The notes under the pieces are model-generated. The model worked only from the letters and a program-made list of their open reading frames with translations, had not been told where the DNA came from and did not search any database. Shown piece after piece: positions 1 to 41,759 of a stretch of DNA of 41,759 nt. This DNA is from a virus. A program made the translations under genes and the position numbers. The stretch lies in the IMG/VR virus record IMGVR_UViG_3300042878_001971, positions 1-41,759 of that record; one strand, given 5' to 3'. Every line of letters starts with the position of its first letter. The first letter of the stretch is position 1.

Positions 1-195
1 CTCTGCGGACGCGAGTCTCCAGCCGGCGATCCGGCAGATCCTTCGCAACCGGGCACGCTACGAACTCAGGAATAACTCCTACGCCGCGGGCATCGCGAGC
101 ACCTGGAGCAACGACCTGGTCGGCACCGGCCCCCGGCTACAGCTCGACCTCGGCCCCGACGTGTCGCCCGAAGCGGTCCGTTCGGTCGAGAATGC
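1..195. repeat. Terminal overlap, left copy
   Basis: Bases 1-195 match 41565-41759 except at two adjacent positions (C67/A68 here, G41631/C41632 there). Both changes are silent in the portal frame (Leu-Arg in each copy). The repeat begins and ends inside the portal gene, which fits a circular or circularly permuted assembly better than functional terminal repeats. Confidence 0.95.
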
Positions 196-1627: not shown

Positions 1628-3489
1628 ACAACCGCATCGAACTATCCGCAACCCTCAACGTCCAAGCGGCCGACGAGGCCGCGACGCCGACGTTTGAACT
1701 GTTGGCCTACACCGGGGCGTCGATCCGCCAGGGGTGGTCGAGGAATCCGCTGGTGGTCGATCTCGCGCAGATCGACGCCTCGCGGCCGATCCCGATTCTC
1801 TACGCCCACGGCAAAGAGATGTCGATGCTCGACAGCGTGATCGGACGAAGTCTTGAAGCCACGAACGATGGCAGCCAGCTCGTGCTCCGCGGCGAACTGA
1901 TTCGCGGGACTCCGGCCGGCGACAAGCTGATCGCCCTCGCGAAGGCCGGTGTGCCGCTGCAAGCGAGCATCGGGGCCGACGTGGGCTCAATCGAAAACAT
2001 CGCCGCGGGAGCCAGCGTGACAGTCAACGGTCGCGAGTTCTCCGGCCCAATCAGTGTTGCTCGTGGGGCGGTTCTCCGCGAAACGAGCGTGGTCTTGTTC
2101 GGTGCGGACGGTGCAACGTCCGCGGCTATCGCCGCCGAGGCGAGTGAGGTATTCCCTATGAGCGATCAGCTCAACGAGAAGCCCGTCGAGGCCGCCGTGC
2201 CGAAGACGGAAGCCCCGGCGATCGTCGTCGCGGACCCGAAGCCCATCGTCGCCACCGCTGGCGGTGACAGTGCCAGCCTCATCGCCGGCGAGGTCGCCGA
2301 GATCGTGATGCAGCGGATGCGAGAGGAGCGGATCGCGGAGGTCCGGGCTTCTCGCCCGTCGGCTCCCGCGATCCACGTTGTCGATGCCGCCGCGGCCAAC
2401 GCGCCGAAGGTGGTGGAGGCGGCGTTGTGTCTCGCTGGCGGCCTCGCCAACGTCGAGAAGGTCTTCGACGAGAAGACCCTCGAGGCGGCTGACCGGCGGC
2501 GAAACCACACGTCGCTTCAGGAGGTGCTGATTGAGGCTGCCCGTCGGAACGGCTACACCGGTCCGGCCCGCATCCACGATGGCAACATCCGCGAGGTGCT
2601 CGCCGGTGCGTTCCCCCAGGTGCAAGCCGCTGGGTTCGCCACGCACAGCATCAGCAATGTGCTCGCGGCGACCTACGGCAAGTTCCTTCTCCAGGGCTAC
2701 AACGCCGTCGAGTCGACGTGGGACATGATCGCGTCGATCCGAAGCGTCAGTGACTACAAGACGGTCACGGGCGTGCGGCTCAACGGCGGCTTCGAGTTCG
2801 AGGATCTCGGTCCCAGCGGCGAACTGAAGTCGGCCGACGCCTCCGACGAGACGCGGACGATCAAGGCCAAGCTGACAGGCCGCATGTCCAGCATCACGAT
2901 GGTCGACATCGTGAACGACGACCTGGGTGCTCTGACTCAGGTGCCATCCAGGCTGGGCCGCGGTGCCGCGGTCAAGCTGAACAAGGATTTCTGGACCGAG
3001 TTTCAGTTGAACAACTCGACGTTCTTTCAGAAAGAGACGGCCGCGGCAGGCAACGCCTTGGCGATCTCGTCGTTGAAGACGGCGGTGACTTCCTACAAGA
3101 AGCTCACCGATCCCGACGGTAACCCGTTGGGCATCTCGCCGTCGATGATCCTCGTCCCACCGGACCTGGAGATCACCGCCGACGAGATGATGGGATCGAC
3201 GGTGCTCATCACGGGCGAGAGCGTGACCCGCGGAAACGTGAACGTGTTCGCTGGTCGGTTCCAGGTTGTGCCCTCGTCCTACCTGACGAGTTCATCGACC
3301 TGGTGGCTGGTCGCCAACCCGGCCGAGCTGCCCTGCATGGAGGTCGCTTTCTTGAACGGCCAGCGGCTCCCCACGGTGCAGCAGGCGGACGCCGACTTCA
3401 ACCAGCTCGGCATCCAGGTCCGCGGGCACTTCAGCTATGGCGTCGCCAAGGCTGAGAGCCGCGGATGCTACCGGATGGCGACCGCTTGA
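1624..3489 (+). CDS. Prohead protease-major capsid protein fusion
   Basis: A 621-residue polyprotein. The N-terminal ~170 residues look like an S78/HK97-type prohead protease, with likely catalytic His62 (YAHGKE) and Ser115 (ASIGADVG). A Pro/Ala/Glu-rich charged linker follows (~175-290), then a major capsid domain of HK97 fold resembling the Mu gpT-like group (~290-621). The protease would cut the scaffold-like linker during maturation. The ATG at 1624 overlaps the portal stop (ATGA). An in-frame Met179 at 2158, just after the protease domain, is preceded by a GTGAGG-like sequence and could give a separate linker-capsid product. Protease-capsid fusions of this kind are known in phages and prophages of planctomycetes and proteobacteria. 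Confidence 0.88.
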   Translation: MNNRIELSATLNVQAADEAATPTFELLAYTGASIRQGWSRNPLVVDLAQIDASRPIPILYAHGKEMSMLDSVIGRSLEATNDGSQLVLRGELIRGTPAGDKLIALAKAGVPLQASIGADVGSIENIAAGASVTVNGREFSGPISVARGAVLRETSVVLFGADGATSAAIAAEASEVFPMSDQLNEKPVEAAVPKTEAPAIVVADPKPIVATAGGDSASLIAGEVAEIVMQRMREERIAEVRASRPSAPAIHVVDAAAANAPKVVEAALCLAGGLANVEKVFDEKTLEAADRRRNHTSLQEVLIEAARRNGYTGPARIHDGNIREVLAGAFPQVQAAGFATHSISNVLAATYGKFLLQGYNAVESTWDMIASIRSVSDYKTVTGVRLNGGFEFEDLGPSGELKSADASDETRTIKAKLTGRMSSITMVDIVNDDLGALTQVPSRLGRGAAVKLNKDFWTEFQLNNSTFFQKETAAAGNALAISSLKTAVTSYKKLTDPDGNPLGISPSMILVPPDLEITADEMMGSTVLITGESVTRGNVNVFAGRFQVVPSSYLTSSSTWWLVANPAELPCMEVAFLNGQRLPTVQQADADFNQLGIQVRGHFSYGVAKAESRGCYRMATA

Positions 3490-3510
3490 TCGTAATGTGA
3501 TTCGTGCCCG

Positions 3511-3535
3511 GCCGGCGGGGGTCCAACCCGCCGGC
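3511..3535 (+). terminator. Hairpin after capsid gene
   Basis: A perfect 9-bp GC stem (GCCGGCGGG with CCCGCCGGC) and a 7-base loop lies between the capsid and decoration genes. There is no T-run after it, so it is more likely an attenuator or an mRNA-stabilising or processing hairpin than a full terminator. Confidence 0.45.
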
Positions 3536-3578
3536 TGGGGCTCTCAACCTCCATACTCCCGATACGAAAGGTTCTCAG

Positions 3579-3902
3579 ATGCCCAGTTATTACGCAGACG
3601 GAAACAAGCTCGACTACACCCCGACGACGGGCGTGGCAGCGGGCGAAATCGTCGTCCTCGGCGGCCTTGTGACGGTCGCCGATCGTCCGATCGTCGCCAA
3701 CGAGCTCGGTGCCGTTCACACCAACTGTGTCGTGACCGGCTCGGTGGCCGCAACCGGTATCACCGGTGCCCAAGGCTCGGCCATTCGGTGGTACGCCGCG
3801 TCGGGCGTGTTCGACGCCACGACCGGTGTCACCGCGGGCTACCTGGCCCGTCCCCGACTGGTGGCCGATCGCCAGGTGGCGGTGCTCCTCTGGCCCTCGT
3901 GA
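3579..3902 (+). CDS. DUF2190-like capsid decoration (cement) protein
   Basis: 107 residues. The pattern of a short polar N-terminus (MPSYYADGNKLDYTP), a 'GVAAGEIVVLGG' turn and an all-beta remainder matches DUF2190 proteins, which coat the outside of HK97-type capsids and stabilise them, like lambda gpD. The ATG at 3579 is chosen because of the GAAAGG SD just upstream; in-frame codons before it lie in the hairpin region and are unlikely to be translated. Its position directly after the capsid gene is typical. The gene is flanked by strong hairpins on both sides (3511-3535, 3917-3956), which may isolate or stabilise a highly expressed transcript. It contains TGITG-type strings that recur in other virion proteins here. 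Confidence 0.78.
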   Translation: MPSYYADGNKLDYTPTTGVAAGEIVVLGGLVTVADRPIVANELGAVHTNCVVTGSVAATGITGAQGSAIRWYAASGVFDATTGVTAGYLARPRLVADRQVAVLLWPS

Positions 3903-3916
3903 CCGACCCCACGCAA

Positions 3917-3956
3917 GGGGGCGGGTGCGGCCACGCTATCGGCCGCGCCCGCCCCT
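3917..3956 (+). terminator. Strong hairpin after decoration gene
   Basis: About 15 bp of stem with one internal T-G wobble (left arm 3917-3932, right arm 3941-3956) and an 8-base loop. The tail is CTCTCG, so it lacks a proper U-tract. It could be a partial terminator lowering expression of the genes downstream of the abundant capsid proteins. Confidence 0.6.
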
Positions 3957-3973
3957 CTCGCACCTGGTGACCC

Positions 3974-4864
3974 ATGCAGGACATGATCGCCCTCGGCGAG
4001 ACGTGGTTTCGATCGCAGCGGCGTGAGCACCTCGCGACGGAGGTGTCGTACCAACCGGCCATCGGCACCACGCGGACAGTGCGGGCGACCGTCGTGGTCG
4101 GCCGGTGGGAGTCGATAGATTCCGCCGGCCAGATGCTGCGGACGGAGACGCAAGATTTTTTCGTTGACACGACGGACCTTGCCCAAGATCCGAAGAAGGG
4201 CGACAGGATCGTAGCCGGCGGCTTTACCTACGAGGTGATGATCCCGCCGGGGGCCGAGCATCACTGGCGGTGGTCGGATCGGAATAAGACTCTACGGCGG
4301 ATTCACACGATGGTGACCGAGGGACCATCTACCCGCACTCCGGCCGTTCCCGGGCCGCCCACCGCTCTCGTAGTCGTCAGTGGCCCTCGCGTGACGTGGA
4401 CGGCCCCCGTGGTGACCGACGAGTACGTCGTGACCTCCTACAGGGTCTACGCCGGCGACGTGCTTCAGGAGACCGTGACGGCCCCCTCAAGGACGAGCGT
4501 CGGGACGTTTTCGGGTGGCACGGTGGTCCGCGTCTCGGCGGTGAACGCGATCGGTGAGGGGGCAAAGAGTTCGCCGGTGACGATCACGGCGGTGCCAGGT
4601 GCCCCGACAATCGCTGGGGCATATTTCGATCCGAGTGAAGGCGGCACGAATGTCTCGTGGCAAGCGCCGACGAGCAATGGCGGGACTGCTATCACTGGAT
4701 ACCGCGTGTATTTCGACGGCGAGTACGTCACGCCAGACACTATCGTCGGCAGCGAATACTACCGGTTCGAAGGCAACTTCTCCGGCTACAACGCCGAAGT
4801 TTCGGCCGTCAACGCCGTAGGCGAGGGGCCCACGTCTGCACCCGTGACGGTGGTTGTGGCGTAG
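3974..4864 (+). CDS. Head-tail adaptor with two C-terminal FN3 domains
   Basis: 296 residues. Residues 1-115 look like a head-closure or head-tail joining protein (short beta-rich domain with QDFFVDTTDL and FTYEVMIPPG), expected at this position. They are followed by two fibronectin type III-like repeats (~125-208 and ~210-296), each with the pattern PGPPTAL/PGAPTI, a W-x-A-P strand, a Y-R-V-Y strand and a terminal VSAVNA(I/V)GEG turn. FN3 or Ig-like domains on virion proteins usually decorate the surface and bind carbohydrates. One copy of the dispersed GTATTTCGA motif falls at 4708. The FN3 assignment is firm from the repeated pattern; the adaptor assignment rests on position and length. 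Confidence 0.72.
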   Translation: MQDMIALGETWFRSQRREHLATEVSYQPAIGTTRTVRATVVVGRWESIDSAGQMLRTETQDFFVDTTDLAQDPKKGDRIVAGGFTYEVMIPPGAEHHWRWSDRNKTLRRIHTMVTEGPSTRTPAVPGPPTALVVVSGPRVTWTAPVVTDEYVVTSYRVYAGDVLQETVTAPSRTSVGTFSGGTVVRVSAVNAIGEGAKSSPVTITAVPGAPTIAGAYFDPSEGGTNVSWQAPTSNGGTAITGYRVYFDGEYVTPDTIVGSEYYRFEGNFSGYNAEVSAVNAVGEGPTSAPVTVVVA

Positions 4865-4880
4865 CCGAGGAAAAATCAGC

Positions 4881-5639
4881 ATGGCAAAAAATATGACTCG
4901 ACGTGCATTTCCTCGAGGCGGCGTCCGCACCCGTCTGCCCCTGACGATCTATCGCCGGTCGACAGGGTTTGACCCGAAGAGCATTGCCGGGCTTTTTGTG
5001 TGGTATGACGCAACGGCCGCGTCAACCCTGACGATGTCAGGCAGTAGCGTCACGGCTATCGCAGACCGTAGTGGAAACGGCCGCAATGCCGTGCAAGCCG
5101 TCGGGGCGCATCAACCGGTCATGTCCACCATTGGATCCAAGGCAGCCATTGCGTTTGCCCCGCAGAATCTTTTGGCAGTCGTCACGTCGTACACCATCAC
5201 GGCACAGAGCGTGTTTGCTGTGGTGGCTATCGACGGCCTAATTGCGTTTGACCGGATTGTGGCCCAAGAGTCGGAAACCGAAAACGCTGTATATATCCCT
5301 TTACTTATTCCCAACCCAGCGACCTACACCCTCGGCTCCTATAACGGCGGAGCGTTTCGTTCTGGGGTTTCGGTAACGCAATCTGCAGGCACAATCGCAG
5401 AGTCGCACCATGACGGCAGTGCGTTGACGTGCCGTGCAAATGGCGTCGTCGGCGCGTCATTTTCTTCAAGCCTGAACTTCTCTCCTACAAAACTACTGCT
5501 TGGCAACGGAGCTGGTTTAAGCAACGGACTCACAGGGCGGCTGGGCGAAGTGCTCGTCTGGAATCGGGCACTGACTGCTGCTGAGATCCTTACGATTCGC
5601 CGGTATCTTTCCGCAAAATGGAGCATCGCAGTCTCATGA
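4881..5639 (+). CDS. LamG/concanavalin A-like lectin-fold virion protein
   Basis: 252 residues. After a basic N-terminus there is a typical jelly-roll signature: 'IAGLFVWYDAT', then 'ADRSGNGRNAVQ' with 'QPV', and near the C-terminus 'GRLGEVLVWNRALTAAE', the pattern of Laminin-G_3/concanavalin A-like domains. Such proteins bind carbohydrates and are often appended to capsids or tail fibres. The ATG at 4881 has a GAGG SD; an earlier in-frame ATG at 4854 lies inside the preceding gene and lacks one. Base composition is visibly more AT-rich than neighbouring genes (for example around 5280-5310), suggesting recent acquisition. Confidence 0.7.
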   Translation: MAKNMTRRAFPRGGVRTRLPLTIYRRSTGFDPKSIAGLFVWYDATAASTLTMSGSSVTAIADRSGNGRNAVQAVGAHQPVMSTIGSKAAIAFAPQNLLAVVTSYTITAQSVFAVVAIDGLIAFDRIVAQESETENAVYIPLLIPNPATYTLGSYNGGAFRSGVSVTQSAGTIAESHHDGSALTCRANGVVGASFSSSLNFSPTKLLLGNGAGLSNGLTGRLGEVLVWNRALTAAEILTIRRYLSAKWSIAVS

Positions 5640-5917
5640 GGTACTTCATAGGGCAAGATGACATCGGGTACGAGACGATACGCACCACGCTGGATGCTGC
5701 ATGGAATTTGCCAAACAACCTCGGCACCGACACCTGCCTGCCGCCCGCCAACGTGGCACCACGCAACCAGTCTGGGCTCATCACCCTGGCCCTCAGAGAC
5801 GAGTTCTGCGAATGGCCGCCAGCGTCTGCAATGCTGCCAGAACTGCTAAGCGTTGGCGTGATTACAGAAATCAGTGCTGACGAATACCGGGCAAGTATCA
5901 GTAGGCCAGGGCCGTGA
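5636..5917 (+). CDS. Small protein of unknown function
   Basis: 93 residues, starting at an ATG that overlaps the lectin stop (ATGA at 5636-5639), so translation is probably coupled. The sequence is soluble and mixed (MRYFIGQDDIGYET at the start; EFCEWPPASAM in the middle) with no motif I recognise. Its AT-richer composition matches the lectin gene, so the two probably arrived together. It may be a partner or chaperone of the lectin. Confidence 0.6.
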   Translation: MRYFIGQDDIGYETIRTTLDAAWNLPNNLGTDTCLPPANVAPRNQSGLITLALRDEFCEWPPASAMLPELLSVGVITEISADEYRASISRPGP

Positions 5918-5929
5918 ACCACCAGAGTC

Positions 5930-5977
5930 CCCTAGCCCTGTGAGCTAGGGCACTGCCCCCGCGAAAATCCGGGGTTT
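5930..5977 (+). terminator. Tandem hairpins before glycan cassette
   Basis: Two stem-loops: CCCTAGC (5930-5936) with GCTAGGG (5944-5950), then CCCCG (5957-5961) with CGGGG (5970-5974) followed by TTT. They separate the lectin pair from the glycan cassette and may be a weak intrinsic terminator. Confidence 0.5.
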
Positions 5978-6026
5978 ACGCTCCCGCCCATTTGGGTAGG
6001 CTACCGGTGAACAGGTGAACACCGGC

Positions 6027-7085
6027 ATGATTGAACACCTCCATCGCGTCGCGGCCCACGCCTACCACTGCGGCGAGCACGAGGTCGGCCGCCGATGCTG
6101 CGAGCGGCTTCTGCGGCTGCCGCTCTCCGCGGAGAAGGAAGAGCGGGTGCGATCCAATCGCACCTGGTACACGCAGACGCTTTTTGAGCAGGGCGTCGCC
6201 GCGGAGTTCACGCAGATCGACGTGGCCCCGGCCCGTGTCGGCTGGTCGCTGTTCAACCCTTCGGTCGTGAGCCACGGCGACCGGTTACTCGTCAACGTGC
6301 GGTCGAGCAACTATTCGATCGCAGACGCGGGCAACTACGTCATCCCGCCGGAGGATCGCGAGACGATCCGGACTTACAACTGCCTCGTCGACAACGGGCA
6401 CGCTCGGGGCTATTGGGCTGCCGACTACGACGCCACCGGATTTCCGGTCGAGGGCCTTGAGGACGTGCGGCTCAACTCTGTTGAGGGTGAGCTGATCGCG
6501 TCGGCCACGATCCGCAACTGGGCGGGCCGCGACGGGACGTGCAGGATCGGCGTCGGCAAGCTGGAGACGTTTGACCGGATCCGCGACCTCCGCTGCCACG
6601 ACACCGTGAGCGGCCGGCACGAGAAAAACTGGATGCCGATTACCGGCCGTCGGGAGTGGCTCTACCACTGCAGCCACCAAGGCCGGACGTGCCTCGTCCG
6701 CGAGGACGGCGACGATTGGACGGTCACCGCCCACGCCGAGGCCCCGCCGGTGGCCCGCGGGTTCCGCGGCGGCTCGCAGCTCGTCGAGCACCCTTGGGCT
6801 CCGGGTCTATGGTGGGGAATAGTCCACGAGGTGGCTGTCTCCGGTGGTCGTCGAGCCTACGAACATCGGTTCGTCATGTTCGACGAGGGCCAGGACTGGC
6901 GGATCACCAGAGTCTCGCCGGCTTTCGCGTTCCGTGAAACGCGGAGTATCGAGTTCTGTGCCGGCCTCGCGGTCAGCGGTCAGAGCACGCTCGTCGCATC
7001 GTTCGGTGTGCGGGACGCCGAGGCGTGGCTGGCCCACCTACCGATCGGCGACGTTCTCAACATCATGGGTGACGCATGGGAGTGA
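6027..7085 (+). CDS. GH43/GH130-like beta-propeller glycosidase-family protein
   Basis: 352 residues from ATG 6027. An N-terminal helical segment (~1-60, TPR-like, Cys-rich around CCERLL) precedes a five-bladed beta-propeller-like region. Signature pieces are NPSVV with 'VNVRSSNY', 'GLEDVRLN' (the ED-x-R-L motif seen in GH130/GH43-like families), and 'EKNWMPI'. Such proteins act on or bind glycans and often sit beside glycosyltransferases. The SD AGGTG lies in the loop of a small hairpin (CCGGTG 6004-6009 with CACCGG 6020-6025); an alternative GTG start is at 6015. It heads a four-gene cassette with two methyltransferases and a glycosyltransferase. Enzyme activity is not certain. Confidence 0.65.
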   Translation: MIEHLHRVAAHAYHCGEHEVGRRCCERLLRLPLSAEKEERVRSNRTWYTQTLFEQGVAAEFTQIDVAPARVGWSLFNPSVVSHGDRLLVNVRSSNYSIADAGNYVIPPEDRETIRTYNCLVDNGHARGYWAADYDATGFPVEGLEDVRLNSVEGELIASATIRNWAGRDGTCRIGVGKLETFDRIRDLRCHDTVSGRHEKNWMPITGRREWLYHCSHQGRTCLVREDGDDWTVTAHAEAPPVARGFRGGSQLVEHPWAPGLWWGIVHEVAVSGGRRAYEHRFVMFDEGQDWRITRVSPAFAFRETRSIEFCAGLAVSGQSTLVASFGVRDAEAWLAHLPIGDVLNIMGDAWE

Positions 7086-7636
7086 CCGCATCGCTGCAAT
7101 GGACCGACGCCGTTCGCAAGTTGCTGGAGAGCAACTGGCGGGAGGATGATTGGTTCGGCTGCGACAGCCGGGTGATTTTCCATTACGCGATGAAGGGCGA
7201 GATTTTCCGCCGCCACAAGCCCGCCAGCGTGATCGAGATCGGCACCCGCTGCGGCTACTCGCTGCTGACGTTTGATGCTGCGGCCCCGGGTGCCCACTAC
7301 CTCTGCATCGACGGGGCGATGGATGCCGACTCCTACGACTGCCTCGCCCACTGGCGGCGGCTTGTTGAGCGGCACAGCATCGACGCCGACCTGGTCGTGG
7401 TCGACTCCCACGCGATCAAGAGTCTGCCGCCGGCAGACTTCGCCCATGTCGATGGCGACCACTCCTATGCCGGGGCCCTCGCCGACCTCCGGCTGGTGGC
7501 GGGCTGCCGGGTGATCCTCGCCGACGACTGCTGCAACCCGGAGGTGCGGGCCGCGGTGGAGACGTTCGCCAAGGAGCAAGCGAGGACGGTGGAGTATTTC
7601 GATGACGGTTTGAGGAAGGGGGCGGTGCTCACATGA
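7076..7636 (+). CDS. Class I SAM-dependent methyltransferase (Methyltransf_24-like)
   Basis: 186 residues. The glycine-rich SAM-binding loop is 'VIEIGTRCGYS' (residues ~52-62), followed by the acidic 'CIDGAMDAD' and 'FAHVDGDHSY', where the D-x-D-H pattern is typical of the Methyltransf_24 group that modifies sugars or small molecules. A 'RVILADDC' strand follows. Its start overlaps the stop of the propeller gene by 10 bases, so it is co-translated with the cassette. It could O- or N-methylate a glycan built by the neighbouring glycosyltransferase. One GTATTTCGA motif copy lies at 7594. Confidence 0.8.
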   Translation: MGVTASLQWTDAVRKLLESNWREDDWFGCDSRVIFHYAMKGEIFRRHKPASVIEIGTRCGYSLLTFDAAAPGAHYLCIDGAMDADSYDCLAHWRRLVERHSIDADLVVVDSHAIKSLPPADFAHVDGDHSYAGALADLRLVAGCRVILADDCCNPEVRAAVETFAKEQARTVEYFDDGLRKGAVLT

Positions 7637-8262
7637 GCCTCATGGATCAGCTCGAGAAGCGTGGCGACCTGTGGTGGCCGAAGGCCGACCACGGTTGCTG
7701 GGAGTGGATGCACGCCGACGACGGGCTTCCCGATAGGCTTGTGGCCCACTGCCGGAAGTTCCGCACGGCGATCGTGGCGGGTGCGAATGCGGGCTTCTAC
7801 ATCGCGGCCTATGCGGCACGGTTTGAGCGTGTGATCGCGGTCGAGCCGGAGCCGGTCAACTTCATGGCCCTCACGCTGAACTGCCCGCAACCAAACGTCA
7901 TCAAGGTGCAGGCGGCACTTGGGAACGTCCGCGGCGATGTCGGCGTGCGAACTGACCACGAGGGGAACTGCGGCGGTTTCTACGTCACCGATAGTGGCTT
8001 GATTCCGGTCTTGCGGATCGACGATTTTGCTGCCGAGGTCGATGCAATCCACCTGGATGTTGAAGGCTACGAGGCTGCGGTGCTCATTGGTGCCGACAAA
8101 ACGATCGCCGAAAACCACCCGACGGTCATGGTTGAGTCGATCGGAAACGGCAGCCGATTCGGATACTCCGACGAGCACGTTCCGCTGATGCTTCTGTCTG
8201 GCGGCTACACGGTTGCCGAGAAACTTGAGCACGACACGGTTTACAAGTGGGGGGGTGCATGA
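7633..8262 (+). CDS. FkbM-family methyltransferase
   Basis: 209 residues. The FkbM pattern is visible: 'TAIVAGANAGFYIAAYA' (SAM loop), 'ERVIAVEPEPVNF', then 'LRIDDF' and 'DAIHLDVEGYEAAVLIGA', which is the hallmark D-(V/I)-E-G-x-E motif. FkbM enzymes methylate sugars and polyketides, commonly in exopolysaccharide clusters. The ATG overlaps the previous stop as ATGA. A second methyltransferase of a different family in the same operon suggests two positions on one glycan are modified. Confidence 0.85.
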   Translation: MSLMDQLEKRGDLWWPKADHGCWEWMHADDGLPDRLVAHCRKFRTAIVAGANAGFYIAAYAARFERVIAVEPEPVNFMALTLNCPQPNVIKVQAALGNVRGDVGVRTDHEGNCGGFYVTDSGLIPVLRIDDFAAEVDAIHLDVEGYEAAVLIGADKTIAENHPTVMVESIGNGSRFGYSDEHVPLMLLSGGYTVAEKLEHDTVYKWGGA

Positions 8263-9311
8263 AGATCGCCATTTACGCCCTAGCCAGGAACGAGTCCGCC
8301 AACGTCGAGCGGTGGGAAGCATCCTGCCGCGATGCCGACGTGCGGGTGGTCACCGACACCGGCAGCACCGACAACACCGTGGAGCTGCTCGAGGCCGCCG
8401 GCGTGACGGTGGCTCGCGGGGCCCCGATCCCGTGGCGATGGGACGACGCACACAACCTCTCGCTCATGCACGTCCCTGCCGACGCGGACGTGGCGATCCG
8501 GCTGGATCTCGACGAGGCCCTCGACCCCTGTTGGCGGGAGGCCCTGGAGGCCGCGTGGACGCCAGAAACCACGAAACTCCGATACCCCTACTGGTGGTCG
8601 CGAGACTTCTGCTTCCGGTGCGACCGCATCCACTCGCGGCATGGCTACCGGTGGACCGGGGCCACGCACGAGGGGCTCGTGCGGTGGTCCGGCACCGACG
8701 TGCAGACCTTCGCCGACAACGTCGTGATCCGCCATCACCGCGAGCCGGGGAAGGTTCACAAAAGCGACCTAGAACTGCTGACGCGGGCCGTAGAGGAGAA
8801 TCCGACCGACGCCCGGATGCACTGGTACTACGCCAGGGAGCTGGACTACTCCGGGGACAAGCGGGCCGGGCCGGCGTTCGCGTCCTACCTCAAGATGCCG
8901 GGCGGTGCCCCCAACGAACGGGCCCACGCCCGCCGGTCGCTGGCGAGGCTCGATCAAGGCGGTGCCAATAGCCATATCCTCGCCGCCATGCTCGAGGCCC
9001 CGACGGAGCCGGAGGCCCACCTGTACGTCGCCCAGATGGGATGGCAGAAGCGTGACCCCGTGGCGACCCTCTACTGGGCTCGCCAGGCGTACCACTGCGA
9101 CCGGGAGAACATGAGTCACACAAGCGACCCGGCGGCCTACGGCGACCTGTCGGCCGACCTCGCCTACTCGGCGGCGTTTGAGCTGGGGCTTTACTCGGAG
9201 GCCCTGGAGTACGCCCGCGAGGCAGCCCGGCGGAACCCGGGCGAGCCGCGGCACGCGGAGAACGTGTCGGCGATTGAGAGAATGACAACAGAGGACGGCC
9301 CCAAACCGTAG
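8259..9311 (+). CDS. GT2-like glycosyltransferase with TPR-like tail
   Basis: 350 residues from ATG 8259 (ATGA overlap). The N-terminus MKIAIYALARNE, 'VVTDTGSTDNTVELL', 'DLDEALDP' (metal-binding D-x-D) and 'WTGATHEGLV' are the GT-A glycosyltransferase family 2 pattern of SunS/LpsB-like enzymes. The C-terminal half (~165-350) carries Ala/Tyr-rich helical repeats resembling TPRs (for example 'DARMHWYYARELDYSGD', 'AAFELGLYSEALEYAREA'), which usually bind the acceptor protein. This arrangement is common for enzymes that glycosylate a peptide or protein. The likely target is a virion protein made from the same transcript, although the host surface cannot be excluded. Confidence 0.82.
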   Translation: MKIAIYALARNESANVERWEASCRDADVRVVTDTGSTDNTVELLEAAGVTVARGAPIPWRWDDAHNLSLMHVPADADVAIRLDLDEALDPCWREALEAAWTPETTKLRYPYWWSRDFCFRCDRIHSRHGYRWTGATHEGLVRWSGTDVQTFADNVVIRHHREPGKVHKSDLELLTRAVEENPTDARMHWYYARELDYSGDKRAGPAFASYLKMPGGAPNERAHARRSLARLDQGGANSHILAAMLEAPTEPEAHLYVAQMGWQKRDPVATLYWARQAYHCDRENMSHTSDPAAYGDLSADLAYSAAFELGLYSEALEYAREAARRNPGEPRHAENVSAIERMTTEDGPKP

Positions 9312-9318
9312 GACGAAA

Positions 9319-9777
9319 ATGGAAGCCATCGAAATACTCATTGCCGATTCTCTCGCTGGCAGCCTTTCGCTGGCACGGTTCGACGGGGCGATCGCGTCAG
9401 TGAACGCCGTCCGGTCCTACGTCCCCGACTACACGGCCGAGGAGCTGGGCGACCTCAAGGTGTCGGTGGTGCCGGGGGAGACCCAAGTCACCCCGCACAC
9501 TCACGGGGCCGACCTGTTTGAGATCGACATTCATGTCGTGGTCGGGAAGCGGATGGCTTCCGACGCTGAGATCGACGACCTGGTCGAGCTGCGGACAAAC
9601 CTCGTGGACGCGATCCGCTCCAAGAAACTGCCGGCCGGCGAGACCACGATGCCACCAGGCGTCGCGTGGATGAACGTCACCAATCTGGTGACCTACGACC
9701 GCGACCAGGTGACGGGGGCCAGGGTCTTCCTGGCCGATATCTCCGTTACCTACCGATACGCCAACGCCAAGGTATAG
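9319..9777 (+). CDS. Tail terminator / tail completion protein
   Basis: 152 residues. It opens with an Ile/Leu-rich amphipathic helix, then an alternating alpha-beta arrangement with 'FEIDIHVVVGKRM' and a closing strand 'VFLADISVTYRYANAKV', like lambda gpU/Z-type tail terminators that cap the tail tube. Its position before the neck protein and the tail-tube genes supports this. The ATG at 9319 has AGGA upstream. One GTATTTCGA motif copy lies antisense within codons 3-7 (9327-9337), where the Ile codon ATA is unusual for this GC-rich genome. Confidence 0.55.
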   Translation: MEAIEILIADSLAGSLSLARFDGAIASVNAVRSYVPDYTAEELGDLKVSVVPGETQVTPHTHGADLFEIDIHVVVGKRMASDAEIDDLVELRTNLVDAIRSKKLPAGETTMPPGVAWMNVTNLVTYDRDQVTGARVFLADISVTYRYANAKV

Positions 9778-9779
9778 CC

Positions 9780-10568
9780 ATGATCCCTCGCGTGCCGGGC
9801 ATGATTCCGCACGTCCCCTCGATCGGGATGAAAGCCTCGATCGACTTGTTCTTTGACCGGCAAGCAATCCGCGATGCCATGTCGGGGATGGATCATCGGG
9901 CACTGTTCAAGTCTGGCGGTCTGATTCGTGACCGCGTCCGGCGGATTATCAAGAGACGTGGGATGGCGAGGATCCCGTCCAAGATCCGGAGAGACTTCCC
10001 CGGGGCCGGCATAAGCACGCTGATGCAGATGGGCGTGCTCGGGAAGAGTTGGGTGCAGAGCGGAAAGTTTGGGCGTCGAGTGATTCGCGAGGTGCAGAAT
10101 CCCAAGCCTTCACCGGCTGGATCTCCGCCGTTCACGCACACGCCGGAGTTTGGGCACCAGGCCAGTTACCTCGGCTTCCGCCGCAACCTCTGGTACTACT
10201 ACGACCAATCGACGCACTCCGTCGTTGTCGGCCCGTCGAAGAAGGGCCGCATGATCCCCTACCTCCACGAGTTCGGCGGCACGCTCAAGCTCAAGACGTG
10301 GGCTTTCATCCCGCAGATCAAGACGCTGAGGGGCGGCATGAGGAGCCCGATCATCATGAAGCTGCCGGCCGGGCAGTTGCCACGCGACCAATCGCGATGG
10401 CGGCCGATGCGGTCGTTCGAGCACAAGTCGACCACCTACCCGGCACGGCCGTTTATGAAACCGGCTATGGAGTTCTGTATTTCCAACGGATCGATCGCCA
10501 AGGCTTTCGCCGGCCAGTTCAAGAGTTCAGCCGGTTCCCGGTCCGGGTTCACCGTCAGCCGCGGATAG
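9780..10568 (+). CDS. Neck / tail-completion protein (HK97 gp10-like)
   Basis: 262 residues, very basic. After a Pro/Met-rich start there is 'ALFKSGGLIRDRVRRIIKRR' and late in the protein 'TTYPARPFMKPAMEF', the 'P-x-R-P-F-(M/I)-x-P' motif typical of HK97 gp10-like or phage virion-morphogenesis proteins that join the head and tail. The ATG at 9780 lies two bases after the previous stop. An overlapping longer reading frame exists upstream but would run through the preceding gene and has no SD. Confidence 0.65.
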   Translation: MIPRVPGMIPHVPSIGMKASIDLFFDRQAIRDAMSGMDHRALFKSGGLIRDRVRRIIKRRGMARIPSKIRRDFPGAGISTLMQMGVLGKSWVQSGKFGRRVIREVQNPKPSPAGSPPFTHTPEFGHQASYLGFRRNLWYYYDQSTHSVVVGPSKKGRMIPYLHEFGGTLKLKTWAFIPQIKTLRGGMRSPIIMKLPAGQLPRDQSRWRPMRSFEHKSTTYPARPFMKPAMEFCISNGSIAKAFAGQFKSSAGSRSGFTVSRG

Positions 10569-19869: not shown

Positions 19870-20109
19870 GTGGCACAGACGCATGAATGGCTGTTTCGCA
19901 CCACCGGCCGAGGGCGTGAACCGCTCTCGGCACCGGAGGAGGGCGGCAGCCATGTTCACTATCAACCGACTCGCCGGGCCGGCATTGGCTCGATCACAAG
20001 TACGCCCCCGGGCCGACGACCGCTGACATTCCTTGAGTACCTCGCGATCCGCTCCGGCATGACGCTTGCCGAAGCCACCAAGCTCCACGAAGAAGGGAAA
20101 ATCCACTGA
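19870..20109 (+). CDS. Small hypothetical protein
   Basis: 79 residues from GTG 19870 with a GAGG SD. The N-terminus is basic and Pro/Gly-rich, while the C-terminus 'LTFLEYLAIRSGMTLAEATKLH' forms a helical region. A GAACAAGCGTACAAT sequence at 19838-19852 resembles the possible -10 boxes at 30270 and 41136. No family recognised. Its stop overlaps the next gene's ATG. Confidence 0.5.
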   Translation: MAQTHEWLFRTTGRGREPLSAPEEGGSHVHYQPTRRAGIGSITSTPPGRRPLTFLEYLAIRSGMTLAEATKLHEEGKIH

Positions 20110-20579
20110 TGTCCACCTCGCTGACAGTCGCCGGCACGACGCGCCTCGCCTGGTCCCTCTCCGATTCGCAGTCGGTCGCCGACTACTCTGCCTCGGGTGA
20201 GGATCGCACCTCGCGTGCGATCTCCAACGGCACGGGCGTGGGGCAAGCCAACGTCGCCGCGTCGAAGTCGCTCACCGGCACACAAGCCGGCTTCTCAATG
20301 TCGACCACCGGCATCACCGGATCGGTCCTCGGGACGCTCCAGACCGCCAACGTCGCCACCGTCCGCGAGCTGCTTGTCCAGGTTCCGACCGGCCCGACCG
20401 GAGGGTTCCTTACTGTGACGCACCCCGGGATCTCGGGCGTGCGGGTTGGCGTCGGCGGGCAACTGCACGTCGCGGACTACGGCAGCGGCATCACCGGCGG
20501 CACGCTGGCGTTCGCCACGTCTGTGACCGGCACCTACGGCGTCGACGTGACGGCGGTTGGCGTGGGGACATACTCGTGA
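20109..20579 (+). CDS. Minor beta-rich virion-like protein
   Basis: 156 residues, almost entirely Ser/Thr/Gly/Val with very few Lys or Cys, and repeated T-G-I-T-G / T-G-P-T-G strings ('STTGITGSVLG', 'VPTGPTGGFLTV', 'GSGITGGTLAF', 'VTGTYGVDV'). This composition, and the strings shared with other virion proteins here, suggest a surface or fibre subunit. It precedes the lysis module. No named family. Confidence 0.5.
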   Translation: MSTSLTVAGTTRLAWSLSDSQSVADYSASGEDRTSRAISNGTGVGQANVAASKSLTGTQAGFSMSTTGITGSVLGTLQTANVATVRELLVQVPTGPTGGFLTVTHPGISGVRVGVGGQLHVADYGSGITGGTLAFATSVTGTYGVDVTAVGVGTYS

Positions 20580-33580: not shown

Positions 33581-33915
33581 CTGCGTCATGGTCTACCGAC
33601 GACGCGATCTCGGCACTCCCGCTGTTCGCGAAGCCCGCAGCGGCTTGCACGGCGAAGGCCGAGCGGGTGGCCGGCTTCGACACCGGCGCGGCCCGTGCGG
33701 CAATCCTCGAGGCCCTCACGAAGTCTGGCCGTGCCATGACCGGCGAGGAGTTGGTGGATCACTGCCAGCGGCTGGGCCTGGTGCCGCACGACGCCAGAGC
33801 GTTCGGCAGCGTGTTCTCAGGGCTGGCAAAGCAAAACCAGATCGTTTCGGTCGGATTCGCGGCCCGGCGTAAGGGTCACGGGACGGCAGGGGCGAGGTTG
33901 TGGAGGGTGAAGTGA
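33577..33915 (+). CDS. Winged-helix-like protein
   Basis: 112 residues, ATGA overlap with the previous gene. Residues ~45-110 ('AAILEALTKSGRAMTGEELVDHCQRLG', 'ARAFGSVFSGLAKQNQIVSVGFAARR') look like a winged helix, with a helix, turn and helix followed by a wing. It may bind DNA or be a regulator within the early operon. No specific family. Confidence 0.5.
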   Translation: MTASWSTDDAISALPLFAKPAAACTAKAERVAGFDTGAARAAILEALTKSGRAMTGEELVDHCQRLGLVPHDARAFGSVFSGLAKQNQIVSVGFAARRKGHGTAGARLWRVK

Positions 33916-35159
33916 GCGAACAAGCGGAGCAAGCCGCCGTGCAGCAGGAAGAAGAAGTTCTTTTCGCACCCGAGGAGAAGTTTGCGAACCCACGCGATCA
34001 CCTTGGCAGGACTGCGGCTGAGTTTGCGGTCGGGTGCAAGAAGGGCGACGAATGTATGTGCCCAGAATGCAAGCACCCTCTTTTGGTGAGGTCTGGTGAA
34101 AGGATTTCTTGTCACTTCGCGCACGCCAAGGGTAGAGCAAACACTGGGTGCAAGGGTGCGTTTGAGACTCCGTGGCACTTTGCCGCAAAGGTTGCTGCAA
34201 GCAATCGCGAGGGATGGCAGAGAGAGTGGAACGACGGAGAATGGAGATACGACGCGTATAACACGAAGACTGGAGAGGTGTTTGAGGCCGTTCACTCACT
34301 CAGTAAGACGTACATCACAAAGCAGCGATACATCGCATCCACAGGCCGTAAGTCTGTGTGGCTATTTGACTCCGCAGCGGAGTTCTGCCAGCAAAGCCGC
34401 GGGCTGCGTCTTGATATAAAAAAGGCGTTCGTTGGCATCCTGTTTTGCTCTGACATCTTGAAACCGAAGACGTGCGACCTCATTGACGAGCTTGGTCCGG
34501 AACGATGTTACCTGCACTACCTTGGGCTCGCATGGAAGTGCGTTGGGCGAGGCGAATGGAGGGCGTGCCTTAGTAACGAAGAGATTTCGAGAGTTATCTA
34601 CGGCCACAGCGGCCTAAACAGCATGCTCATAGACATGCGTGCGAGCGGCGATTATCCAGAGACAAAGGTGTGGTTTCGTGACGGCGCGGACCTCGTAAGC
34701 ACTTCGTGGAGCGAGATAACGGCGGATAACCTCGTCGCGTCTGTTCGCAATCGGTACGACACCATGTACCAAGAGTGGCTGTCAGATAACGTCAAGAGGT
34801 CGCAGGACCGTCGCCGCAGGAACAGGCGGCAGAGGCGGCCTGCAACGGCCGTGGATGTGGCGACAAGGCCGACGCCTGTTTGCGGCATGCCAGCCAAGGG
34901 GTTGACTGACGCTCAATTGGCGACGGCAGAGCAAATAGCAGTTGCAATCGCTCTATCGCACAGACAAGAAGCCTGCACTGTTTCTAATCAGCCGCCCAAT
35001 CAACAGAAGTGCTTCCCGCATTCTCCCGCGATCTCGGGATTAGACCACCGAGGGTGGTGCGAGTATTACTGCGAGAACTGCGGCAAGTGGCTTGGGTACG
35101 CACCAGGCACGGGAGGTACTTTTTTCCGCCAACTGTGTGACGCAAGGGGCGGGCAATGA
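33912..35159 (+). CDS. CoiA-like competence-family nuclease
   Basis: 415 residues from GTG 33912 (GTGA overlap with the previous stop). The pattern is 'CMCPECKHPLLVRSGERISCHFAHAKG' (zinc finger followed by H-F-x-H) and 'ETPWHFAAKV' (E-x-x-W-H-x-x-x-K), as in CoiA-like proteins; the nuclease core motif R-x-A/x-D is not clear. A second Cys cluster lies near the end ('WCEYYCENCGKWLGYAPG'). The gene is clearly more AT-rich than flanking genes, so it is probably an acquired accessory gene (moron). Its role in a phage is unknown; DNA uptake-related or defensive nuclease roles are possible. Confidence 0.65.
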   Translation: MSEQAEQAAVQQEEEVLFAPEEKFANPRDHLGRTAAEFAVGCKKGDECMCPECKHPLLVRSGERISCHFAHAKGRANTGCKGAFETPWHFAAKVAASNREGWQREWNDGEWRYDAYNTKTGEVFEAVHSLSKTYITKQRYIASTGRKSVWLFDSAAEFCQQSRGLRLDIKKAFVGILFCSDILKPKTCDLIDELGPERCYLHYLGLAWKCVGRGEWRACLSNEEISRVIYGHSGLNSMLIDMRASGDYPETKVWFRDGADLVSTSWSEITADNLVASVRNRYDTMYQEWLSDNVKRSQDRRRRNRRQRRPATAVDVATRPTPVCGMPAKGLTDAQLATAEQIAVAIALSHRQEACTVSNQPPNQQKCFPHSPAISGLDHRGWCEYYCENCGKWLGYAPGTGGTFFRQLCDARGGQ

Positions 35160-41403: not shown

Positions 41404-41759
41404 GTGGGCATTCTCGGTAGCATTTTCGGCGGCTCTAGGCGATCGTCGCTCCAAGCGACGGTCGACGCCCAGAAGGCCGCGCTCGCGACGATGGTCCGGG
41501 CAAAGTACGACGCCGCCCAAACGAGCGACCTCAACCGCAATCACTGGGCCAGCTCCGACCACCTCTCTGCGGACGCGAGTCTCCAGCCGGCGATCCGGCA
41601 GATCCTTCGCAACCGGGCACGCTACGAACTGCGGAATAACTCCTACGCCGCGGGCATCGCGAGCACCTGGAGCAACGACCTGGTCGGCACCGGCCCCCGG
41701 CTACAGCTCGACCTCGGCCCCGACGTGTCGCCCGAAGCGGTCCGTTCGGTCGAGAATGC
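41404..41759 (+). CDS. Portal protein, 5' part (continues at base 2)
   Basis: GTG 41404 starts the portal gene two bases after the connector stop. The sequence begins MGILGSIFGGSRR, and the frame is the same as the 2-1627 segment after allowing for the 195-bp overlap (window base 1 corresponds to 41565). Together the two parts encode 595 residues. The window ends within codon 119. Confidence 0.88.
   Translation, partial: MGILGSIFGGSRRSSLQATVDAQKAALATMVRAKYDAAQTSDLNRNHWASSDHLSADASLQPAIRQILRNRARYELRNNSYAAGIASTWSNDLVGTGPRLQLDLGPDVSPEAVRSVEN
41565..41759. repeat. Terminal overlap, right copy
   Basis: Second copy of bases 1-195. The pair GC at 41631-41632 replaces CA at 67-68; both read Leu-Arg. 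It implies that the molecule is circular or circularly permuted with at least two sequence variants present. Confidence 0.95.

What the first reader, a model, noticed from the sequence alone, without database searches (positions are those of the whole stretch)
6027..9311. Four-gene glycan cassette inserted between head and tail genes
A GH43/GH130-like propeller, two methyltransferases of different families and a GT2-like enzyme with a TPR-like tail are transcribed with the virion genes and mostly overlap by stop-start codons. The TPR-like tail suggests protein acceptors. This could produce methylated glycans on capsid or tail proteins (many of which here are Thr/Ser-Gly-rich), altering recognition or evading host defence.
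Basis: partly seen in the sequence, partly recalled or inferred. Interest (0 to 1): 0.72.

Follow-up and report, generated by a model that had tools for sequence, protein, structure and literature searches.

The report
Phage sugar-adding cassette for virion proteins
This uncultured phage and many of its relatives carry, between their head and tail genes, a compact set of enzymes that looks built to attach sugars to the virus's own outer proteins and cap them with methyl groups, with swappable parts; this extends a phenomenon so far shown only in phages of mycobacteria.

Summary
Window 6027-9311 encodes four overlapping genes between head and tail genes of a complete phage genome: a five-bladed GH130/GT108-like propeller (PROP), a Methyltransf_24, an FkbM methyltransferase and a GT2 with a TPR tail. 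The core is PROP+GT2. Among 29 distinct loci ascertained only through the capsid gene, 19 have both, 10 neither and none just one. PROP, GT2 and MT24 co-evolve more tightly with each other than with head or tail genes. FkbM is an optional plug-in, absent from 94-96% identical relatives; other relatives carry different enzymes there. The GT2 model matches the peptide glycosyltransferases SunS/ThuS over its full length. In bacteria, PROP homologues are fused in one chain to GT2-TPR, and 27 of 46 such loci hold a collagen-like (GATGST...) gene. In phages, 16 of 40 cassette-bearing loci have collagen-like stretches, more Ser/Thr-rich than in cassette-free relatives (n=5). Unrelated phages carry a PROP or GT2 relative beside collagen-like virion genes. 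Best reading: O-glycosylation of Ser/Thr in virion adhesins, then methyl capping. The window itself has no collagen repeat, overall Ser/Thr content does not track the cassette, and neither function nor acceptor is proven.

The parts
6027..7085 (+). PROP: N-terminal three-helix TPR-like hairpin (residues 1-48) + five-bladed beta-propeller of GH130/GT108 type; invariant FNPS, E145-D146-V-R148, E199-K-N-W-M-P, H267-E, D330
   Evidence: AF2 pLDDT 94; Foldseek/VIA top hits are GH130 mannoside phosphorylases and GT108 MPT; hhalign to GH130 Prob 96.6, E 6e-10; 38-sequence alignment
7076..7636 (+). MT24: class I SAM methyltransferase (Methyltransf_24), in nearly all cassette-bearing relatives
   Evidence: Pfam PF13578 E 1.6e-8; 76 of 83 loci; co-evolution with PROP rho 0.95
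7633..8262 (+). FkbM-family methyltransferase, optional plug-in gene
   Evidence: PF05050 E 1.4e-13, TIGR01444 E 5.4e-16; absent in 94-96% identical relatives, where MT24 directly abuts GT2
8259..9311 (+). GT2-TPR: GT-A glycosyltransferase with conserved D83-L-D85-E motif and C-terminal TPR superhelix
   Evidence: PHROG 13126 E 2.3e-62; AF2 pLDDT 92.6; full-length match to ThuS/SunS (Foldseek E 2.6e-16, VIA Z 20-21.5); TPR matches collagen prolyl-4-hydroxylase peptide-binding domain Z 14.5
3974..4864 (+). Head-tail joining protein with two C-terminal fn3 domains: left flank and possible acceptor
   Evidence: PF25138 E 1.4e-22, fn3 E 4e-9; S+T 0.20
4854..5639 (+). LamG/concanavalin-type virion protein in the hypervariable head-tail interval: candidate acceptor
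   Evidence: PF13385 E 2e-6, phrog_10356 virion structural protein E 8e-20; in relatives this interval holds different adhesins, often collagen-like
9319..9777 (+). First conserved gene after the cassette; starts the tail-side block (right flank)
   Evidence: Conserved immediately 3' of GT2 in the relatives

Best explanation
The cassette is a cytoplasmic protein-glycosylation module expressed with the virion genes. The GT2-TPR enzyme binds a Ser/Thr-rich stretch of a phage surface protein through its TPR groove and transfers a first sugar from a host nucleotide-sugar to Ser/Thr. In many relatives the likely acceptor is a collagen-like Gly-X-Thr/Ser adhesin encoded just upstream. PROP, a GH130/GT108-type propeller, then adds a further sugar (a beta-mannoside is the family's chemistry). 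MT24 and, in this genome, FkbM cap the glycan by O-methylation; these capping enzymes are swapped between phages while PROP+GT2 stays. Shown by computation: gene content, fold assignments, obligate PROP/GT2 pairing, co-evolution, and linkage to collagen-like genes. Inferred: acceptor, donor, reaction order, methylation target, and benefit to the phage (a hydrated, stiff or antigenically variable fibre coat).
For: GT2 model matches SunS/ThuS over full length; DxD motif invariant. Its TPR resembles the collagen prolyl-4-hydroxylase peptide-binding domain (VIA Z 14.5; Pfam TPR_P4H in 8 of 34 members, best 9.5e-6). The Clostridioides difficile enzyme SgtA has the same architecture (GT-A + C-terminal TPR, 358 aa), lies directly upstream of bclA3 and adds O-GlcNAc to Thr of its collagen repeats in vitro (PMC7157674). 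PROP+GT2 in capsid-ascertained loci: 19 both, 10 neither, 0 single; PROP-GT2 rho 0.92 and PROP-MT24 0.95 versus 0.47-0.76 for PROP or GT2 with head or tail genes. Bacterial PROP homologues are fused to GT2-TPR in one polypeptide, and 27 of 46 such loci hold a collagen-like gene. In the phages, 16 of 40 cassette+ loci have collagen-like runs with S+T 0.82 per triplet versus 0.32 in 5 cassette-free relatives, p 2e-4 uncorrected for relatedness. Independent phages: DSL-LC01 GT2 beside two collagen genes; DSL-LC02 PROP beside a collagen-like gene, tail fibres and two FkbM MTs; 42 of 46 LC01-type and 35 of 52 LC02-type loci of at least 12 kb contain collagen-like runs. No membrane segment.
Against: The window has no Gly-X-Y run of 5 or more, so its own acceptor is unidentified. 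Total Ser/Thr/Gly of the neighbouring variable genes does not differ between cassette+ and cassette- phages, and L278 and L140 keep the cassette with almost nothing between the head gene and PROP. Thr is the commonest Y residue in bacterial collagens generally (PMC8968730), so Thr-richness is weakly specific. Only 5 cassette-free collagen-bearing relatives were available; one (L280) has T 0.50 per triplet, and L343/L345/L350 are called cassette-free on circular-contig reasoning. LC01-type loci have GT2 without PROP, and only 4 of 80 LC02-type loci have GT2 with PROP. TPR folds are generic.
Confidence: 0.6

Rival explanations
1. PROP is a hydrolase or phosphorylase rather than a transferase: it trims the glycan or cleaves a beta-mannoside to supply sugar-1-phosphate, and only GT2 builds the glycan.
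For: The closest folds are mannoside phosphorylases, and the 'ED' motif resembles GH130_NC hydrolases, where Glu replaces Tyr beside the catalytic Asp (PMC4599007).
Against: Obligate pairing and one-chain fusion with a glycosyltransferase fit synthesis better; GT108 has the same fold and transfers from GDP-Man or Man-1-P. The nearest relative annotated in a phage is called beta-mannosyltransferase (annotation only).
Confidence: 0.18
2. The cassette modifies host surface glycans or host proteins (serotype conversion, superinfection exclusion, flagellin-like targets) rather than the virion.
For: Rhamnosyl O-methyltransferases and FkbM enzymes commonly act on surface polysaccharides (established knowledge). 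GT2-TPR resembles GmaR, which I know as a host flagellin-modifying enzyme.
Against: No membrane-anchored transferase or flippase in the cassette; fixed position between head and tail genes; unrelated phages keep the parts beside fibre genes.
Confidence: 0.12
3. The enzymes hypermodify phage DNA bases.
For: Phage glycosyltransferases of GT2-like folds can modify DNA bases (cited in PMC12619734).
Against: No base-hydroxylating or thymidylate-type enzyme among the window proteins scanned (not every ORF was scanned); the TPR tail and SunS-like fold point to peptide; the cassette sits in the virion operon.
Confidence: 0.04
4. The cassette is an auxiliary moron with no virion target, for example making a secreted small glycoside or modified peptide (glycocin-like).
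For: GT2 resembles the glycocin enzymes SunS/ThuS; SunS is prophage-associated (established knowledge).
Against: The SunS equivalog score is 12.7 against a cut-off of 350; the cassette is conserved across a broad set of phages at one structural locus, which is not moron-like. A precursor peptide was not searched for.
Confidence: 0.06

Closest known systems
Clostridioides difficile SgtA / BclA3 (collagen-repeat O-GlcNAc transferase; PMC7157674)
   Same: About 350-aa soluble GT-A with C-terminal TPR repeats; gene beside a collagen-like surface protein; Thr (and Ser) of Gly-X-Y repeats as acceptor
   Different: SgtA sequence was not compared directly; here the GT2 is paired with a propeller and methyltransferases, is phage-borne, and the window lacks a collagen gene
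SunS / ThuS glycocin peptide glycosyltransferases (PDB 7msn, 7msk)
   Same: Whole-length fold: GT-A + TPR (Z 20-21.5)
   Different: Only 13-16% identity; far below the SunS family cut-off; no glycocin context examined
GH130 mannoside phosphorylases/hydrolases and GT108 beta-1,2-mannosyltransferases
   Same: Five-bladed propeller with the catalytic Asp of an E-D-x-R motif
   Different: 12-16% identity, no Pfam match; fused or operonic with a protein-type GT2-TPR; activity unknown
Mycobacteriophage virion glycosylation (Freeman et al. 2023, cited in PMC12619734 and PMC13313380; paper itself not held)
   Same: Phage-encoded glycosyltransferases that O-glycosylate virion proteins
   Different: Known glycans sit on capsid and tail-tube C-termini; no evidence here that the enzymes are related, and these phages are not known to infect mycobacteria

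Membership tests
GH130 / GT108 propeller enzymes | Five-bladed beta-propeller fold | tested here: met
   VIA Z 20-22.8 to GH130, 17-18 to GT108 over about 265 residues
GH130 / GT108 propeller enzymes | Conserved catalytic Asp in E/Y-D-P-R motif | tested here: met
   E145-D146-V-R148 invariant in 38 sequences and aligned to GH130 EDPR
GH130 / GT108 propeller enzymes | Match to family profile PF04041 | tested here: not met
   No Pfam hit for the phage protein; Bradyrhizobium homologue E 2.8e-4, below cut-off
GH130 / GT108 propeller enzymes | Three basic phosphate-binding residues (phosphorylases) | tested here: inconclusive
   Lys200 and His267 fall at aligned positions, the third is unclear
GH130 / GT108 propeller enzymes | Mannoside phosphorolysis, hydrolysis or transfer | not testable with these tools
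   Needs enzyme assay
SunS/ThuS peptide glycosyltransferases | GT-A domain plus C-terminal TPR in one soluble chain | tested here: met
SunS/ThuS peptide glycosyltransferases | TIGR04195 equivalog cut-off | tested here: not met
   12.7 bits against 350
SunS/ThuS peptide glycosyltransferases | Adjacent glycocin precursor and exporter | not tested
   Not searched specifically
SgtA-type collagen O-glycosyltransferase | GT-A + TPR, about 358 aa | tested here: met
   350 aa, same domain order
SgtA-type collagen O-glycosyltransferase | Gene next to a collagen-like Gly-X-Thr protein | tested here: inconclusive
   Met in 16 of 40 relatives, in LC01/LC02-type phages and bacterial homologues; not in the window
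SgtA-type collagen O-glycosyltransferase | GlcNAc transfer to Thr | not testable with these tools
   Needs enzyme assay
Phage virion glycosylation | Phage-encoded glycosyltransferase in the structural region | tested here: met
Phage virion glycosylation | Glycan present on virion proteins | not testable with these tools
   Uncultured phage; needs mass spectrometry

The most novel reading that the evidence does not exclude
A two-enzyme protein O-glycosylation core new to phages, in which a SgtA/SunS-like GT2-TPR primes Ser/Thr on collagen-like or adhesin virion proteins and a GH130/GT108-fold propeller extends the glycan, with interchangeable methyltransferases and extra transferases forming a variable cap. 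The same machine exists in bacteria as one fused polypeptide serving giant Gly-X-Thr collagen-like surface proteins.
Probability: 0.4. Interest if true: 0.78.

Novelty: new variant of a known kind. Interest (0 to 1): 0.62.

Why it matters
Virion glycosylation by phage enzymes has been shown in mycobacteriophages. If this reading is right, it is also common in an unrelated, widespread set of uncultured phages, uses a different enzyme pair, and targets Ser/Thr-rich fibre or collagen-like proteins. The propeller would be a GH130-fold enzyme doing protein glycosylation, and the swappable methyltransferases would make the glycan cap a variable trait that can be read from sequence. The GT2-TPR rule (look beside Gly-X-Thr collagens) also offers a testable guide for annotating many bacterial and phage 'beta-1,4-glycosyltransferases'.

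Tried and rejected
(1) Ser/Thr/Gly richness of all neighbouring virion genes against cassette presence: no difference (S+T 0.20 vs 0.22, p 0.07; [ST]G dipeptides p 0.63). (2) C-terminal Ser/Thr tails on capsid and tail proteins, as in mycobacteriophages: capsid C-termini are nearly identical in cassette+ and cassette- phages, so no such signal. (3) Sequence search of PROP and its profile against the PDB gave only chance-type hits to designed repeat propellers; the fold comparison was needed. (4) Promoter scan of 3400-9900 found nothing, uninformative for an unknown host. (5) MT24 fused in the rhizobial protein: only a sub-threshold hit (E 0.0045) and no hit with the phage MT24 profile, so not claimed. 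(6) DNA modification: no supporting gene among the window proteins scanned. (7) The mycobacteriophage glycosylation paper is not held; cited through others. (8) No bacterial or phage record identified the host.
Full report
WHAT IS THERE. The window is an IMG/VR virus record and a complete genome: its first 195 bases recur at its end with 2 mismatches, and the portal gene is split across the ends. Four + strand genes lie at 6027-9311 with overlaps of 10, 4 and 4 nt. Left of them are portal, a protease-capsid fusion, head-tail joining protein with fn3 domains and a LamG protein; right of them are tail genes and the tape measure.

THE PROTEINS. MT24 and FkbM are clear SAM methyltransferases. PROP had no family match. 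From 38 relatives AlphaFold2 gave pLDDT 94, and the best solved folds are GH130 mannoside phosphorylases (Z up to 22.8) and the GT108 mannosyltransferases (Z about 18). A profile comparison with GH130 proteins fetched here gave Prob 96.6, E 6e-10, placing the invariant E145-D146-V-R148 on the GH130 E-D-P-R motif, whose Asp is essential in BT3780 (PMC4599007). GT2 (pLDDT 92.6) matches the glycocin glycosyltransferases ThuS and SunS along its whole length; its DxD motif is invariant. Its C-terminal TPR block also resembles the peptide-binding domain of collagen prolyl 4-hydroxylase; the corresponding Pfam model matches 8 of 34 members. None of the four has a membrane-like segment.

THE CORE AND THE PLUG-INS. 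In 93 loci holding both flanks, 83 have PROP and GT2, 10 have neither and none has only one; MT24 is in 76. Many of these loci were fetched through PROP or GT2, so I repeated the count on distinct loci fetched only through the capsid protein: 19 both, 10 neither, 0 single. Pairwise distances of PROP correlate with GT2 (0.92) and MT24 (0.95) more than with tail genes (0.67-0.75), the head-tail joining gene (0.70) or capsid (0.49). FkbM is missing from relatives with 94-96% identical PROP, with the gap shortened by one gene. Other relatives carry other inserts: a second FkbM-like gene, extra GT2 genes, other methyltransferases, or nothing (PROP 12 bp from GT2).

WHAT IT ACTS ON. Three independent settings point to Gly-X-Thr collagen-like proteins. 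First, bacterial PROP homologues are part of GT2-TPR-PROP fusion proteins (about 690 aa in Acidimicrobiia, about 1250 aa in rhizobia, often with a second GT2 homologue of about 35% identity next door), and 27 of 46 such loci hold a collagen-like gene of GATGSTGAT type; two checked carry DUF4347 + collagen domains. Second, in this phage group 16 of 40 cassette-bearing loci have collagen-like runs between the head-tail joining gene and PROP; their Ser+Thr content is 0.82 per triplet against 0.32 in five cassette-free relatives, whose repeats are instead K/D/E/Q-rich. Third, unrelated phages: DSL-LC01 has a GT2 relative beside two collagen genes, DSL-LC02 has a PROP relative beside a collagen-like gene, tail fibres and two FkbM methyltransferases; of their relatives with at least 12 kb of sequence, 42 of 46 and 35 of 52 contain collagen-like runs, and in 13 whole records the nearest collagen match lies a median of 7 kb away in genomes of median 107 kb. 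A biochemical precedent exists: C. difficile SgtA, with the same GT-A + TPR layout, lies upstream of bclA3 and O-GlcNAcylates Thr in its collagen repeats (PMC7157674).

LIMITS. The window has no Gly-X-Y run of five or more, so its acceptor is unknown; the LamG and fn3 proteins are candidates only. Overall Ser/Thr/Gly content of the variable genes does not track the cassette. Thr is frequent in bacterial collagens anyway (PMC8968730). The composition test rests on five cassette-free loci, is not corrected for relatedness, and one of the five (L280) is Thr-rich. Being beside fibre genes could reflect only the fibre module's location. Donor, order of action and methyl target are inference.

JUDGEMENT. 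As phage virion glycosylation it is a new variant of a known kind (mycobacteriophages; cited in PMC12619734); the enzyme pair and the collagen link appear to be new, as far as the held literature shows.

Noticed in passing
window 1-195 and 41565-41759: Terminal repeat of 195 bp with 2 mismatches and a portal gene split over the ends: the record looks like a complete, circularly assembled genome.
   Followed up: yes
window 3974-5917 and the same interval in relatives: Hypervariable interval between the head-tail joining gene and the cassette (about 0.1 to 8.4 kb) holding fn3, LamG or collagen-like adhesins, several with a conserved 'PRGGVRTRLP' N-terminus: a likely site of adhesin swapping.
   Followed up: partly
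window 33900-35159: CoiA N-terminal-like protein (PF25164 E 6e-6, just under cut-off) in a phage genome.
   Followed up: no
window 20109-20579: Small protein with 28% Ser+Thr and 17% Gly, no Pfam match; another conceivable acceptor outside the cassette.
   Followed up: no
L364 (Synechococcus phage DSL-LC02) 3258-9702: PROP relative, FkbM genes (one with a TPR-like N-terminal part and a radical-SAM-like C-terminal part, judged by eye) and collagen-like/tail-fibre genes with GTQGTTG repeats at over one Thr per triplet.
   Followed up: partly
L362 (Actinomycetia phage DSL-LC01) 535-13035: Collagen genes, tryptophan halogenase, GT2-TPR relative, methyltransferases and UDP-galactopyranose mutase clustered.
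   Followed up: no
BFVD search, (no window coordinates beyond 6027-7085): Uncharacterised proteins of pithovirus-like records share the PROP fold over nearly its full length (TM up to 0.85).
   Followed up: no
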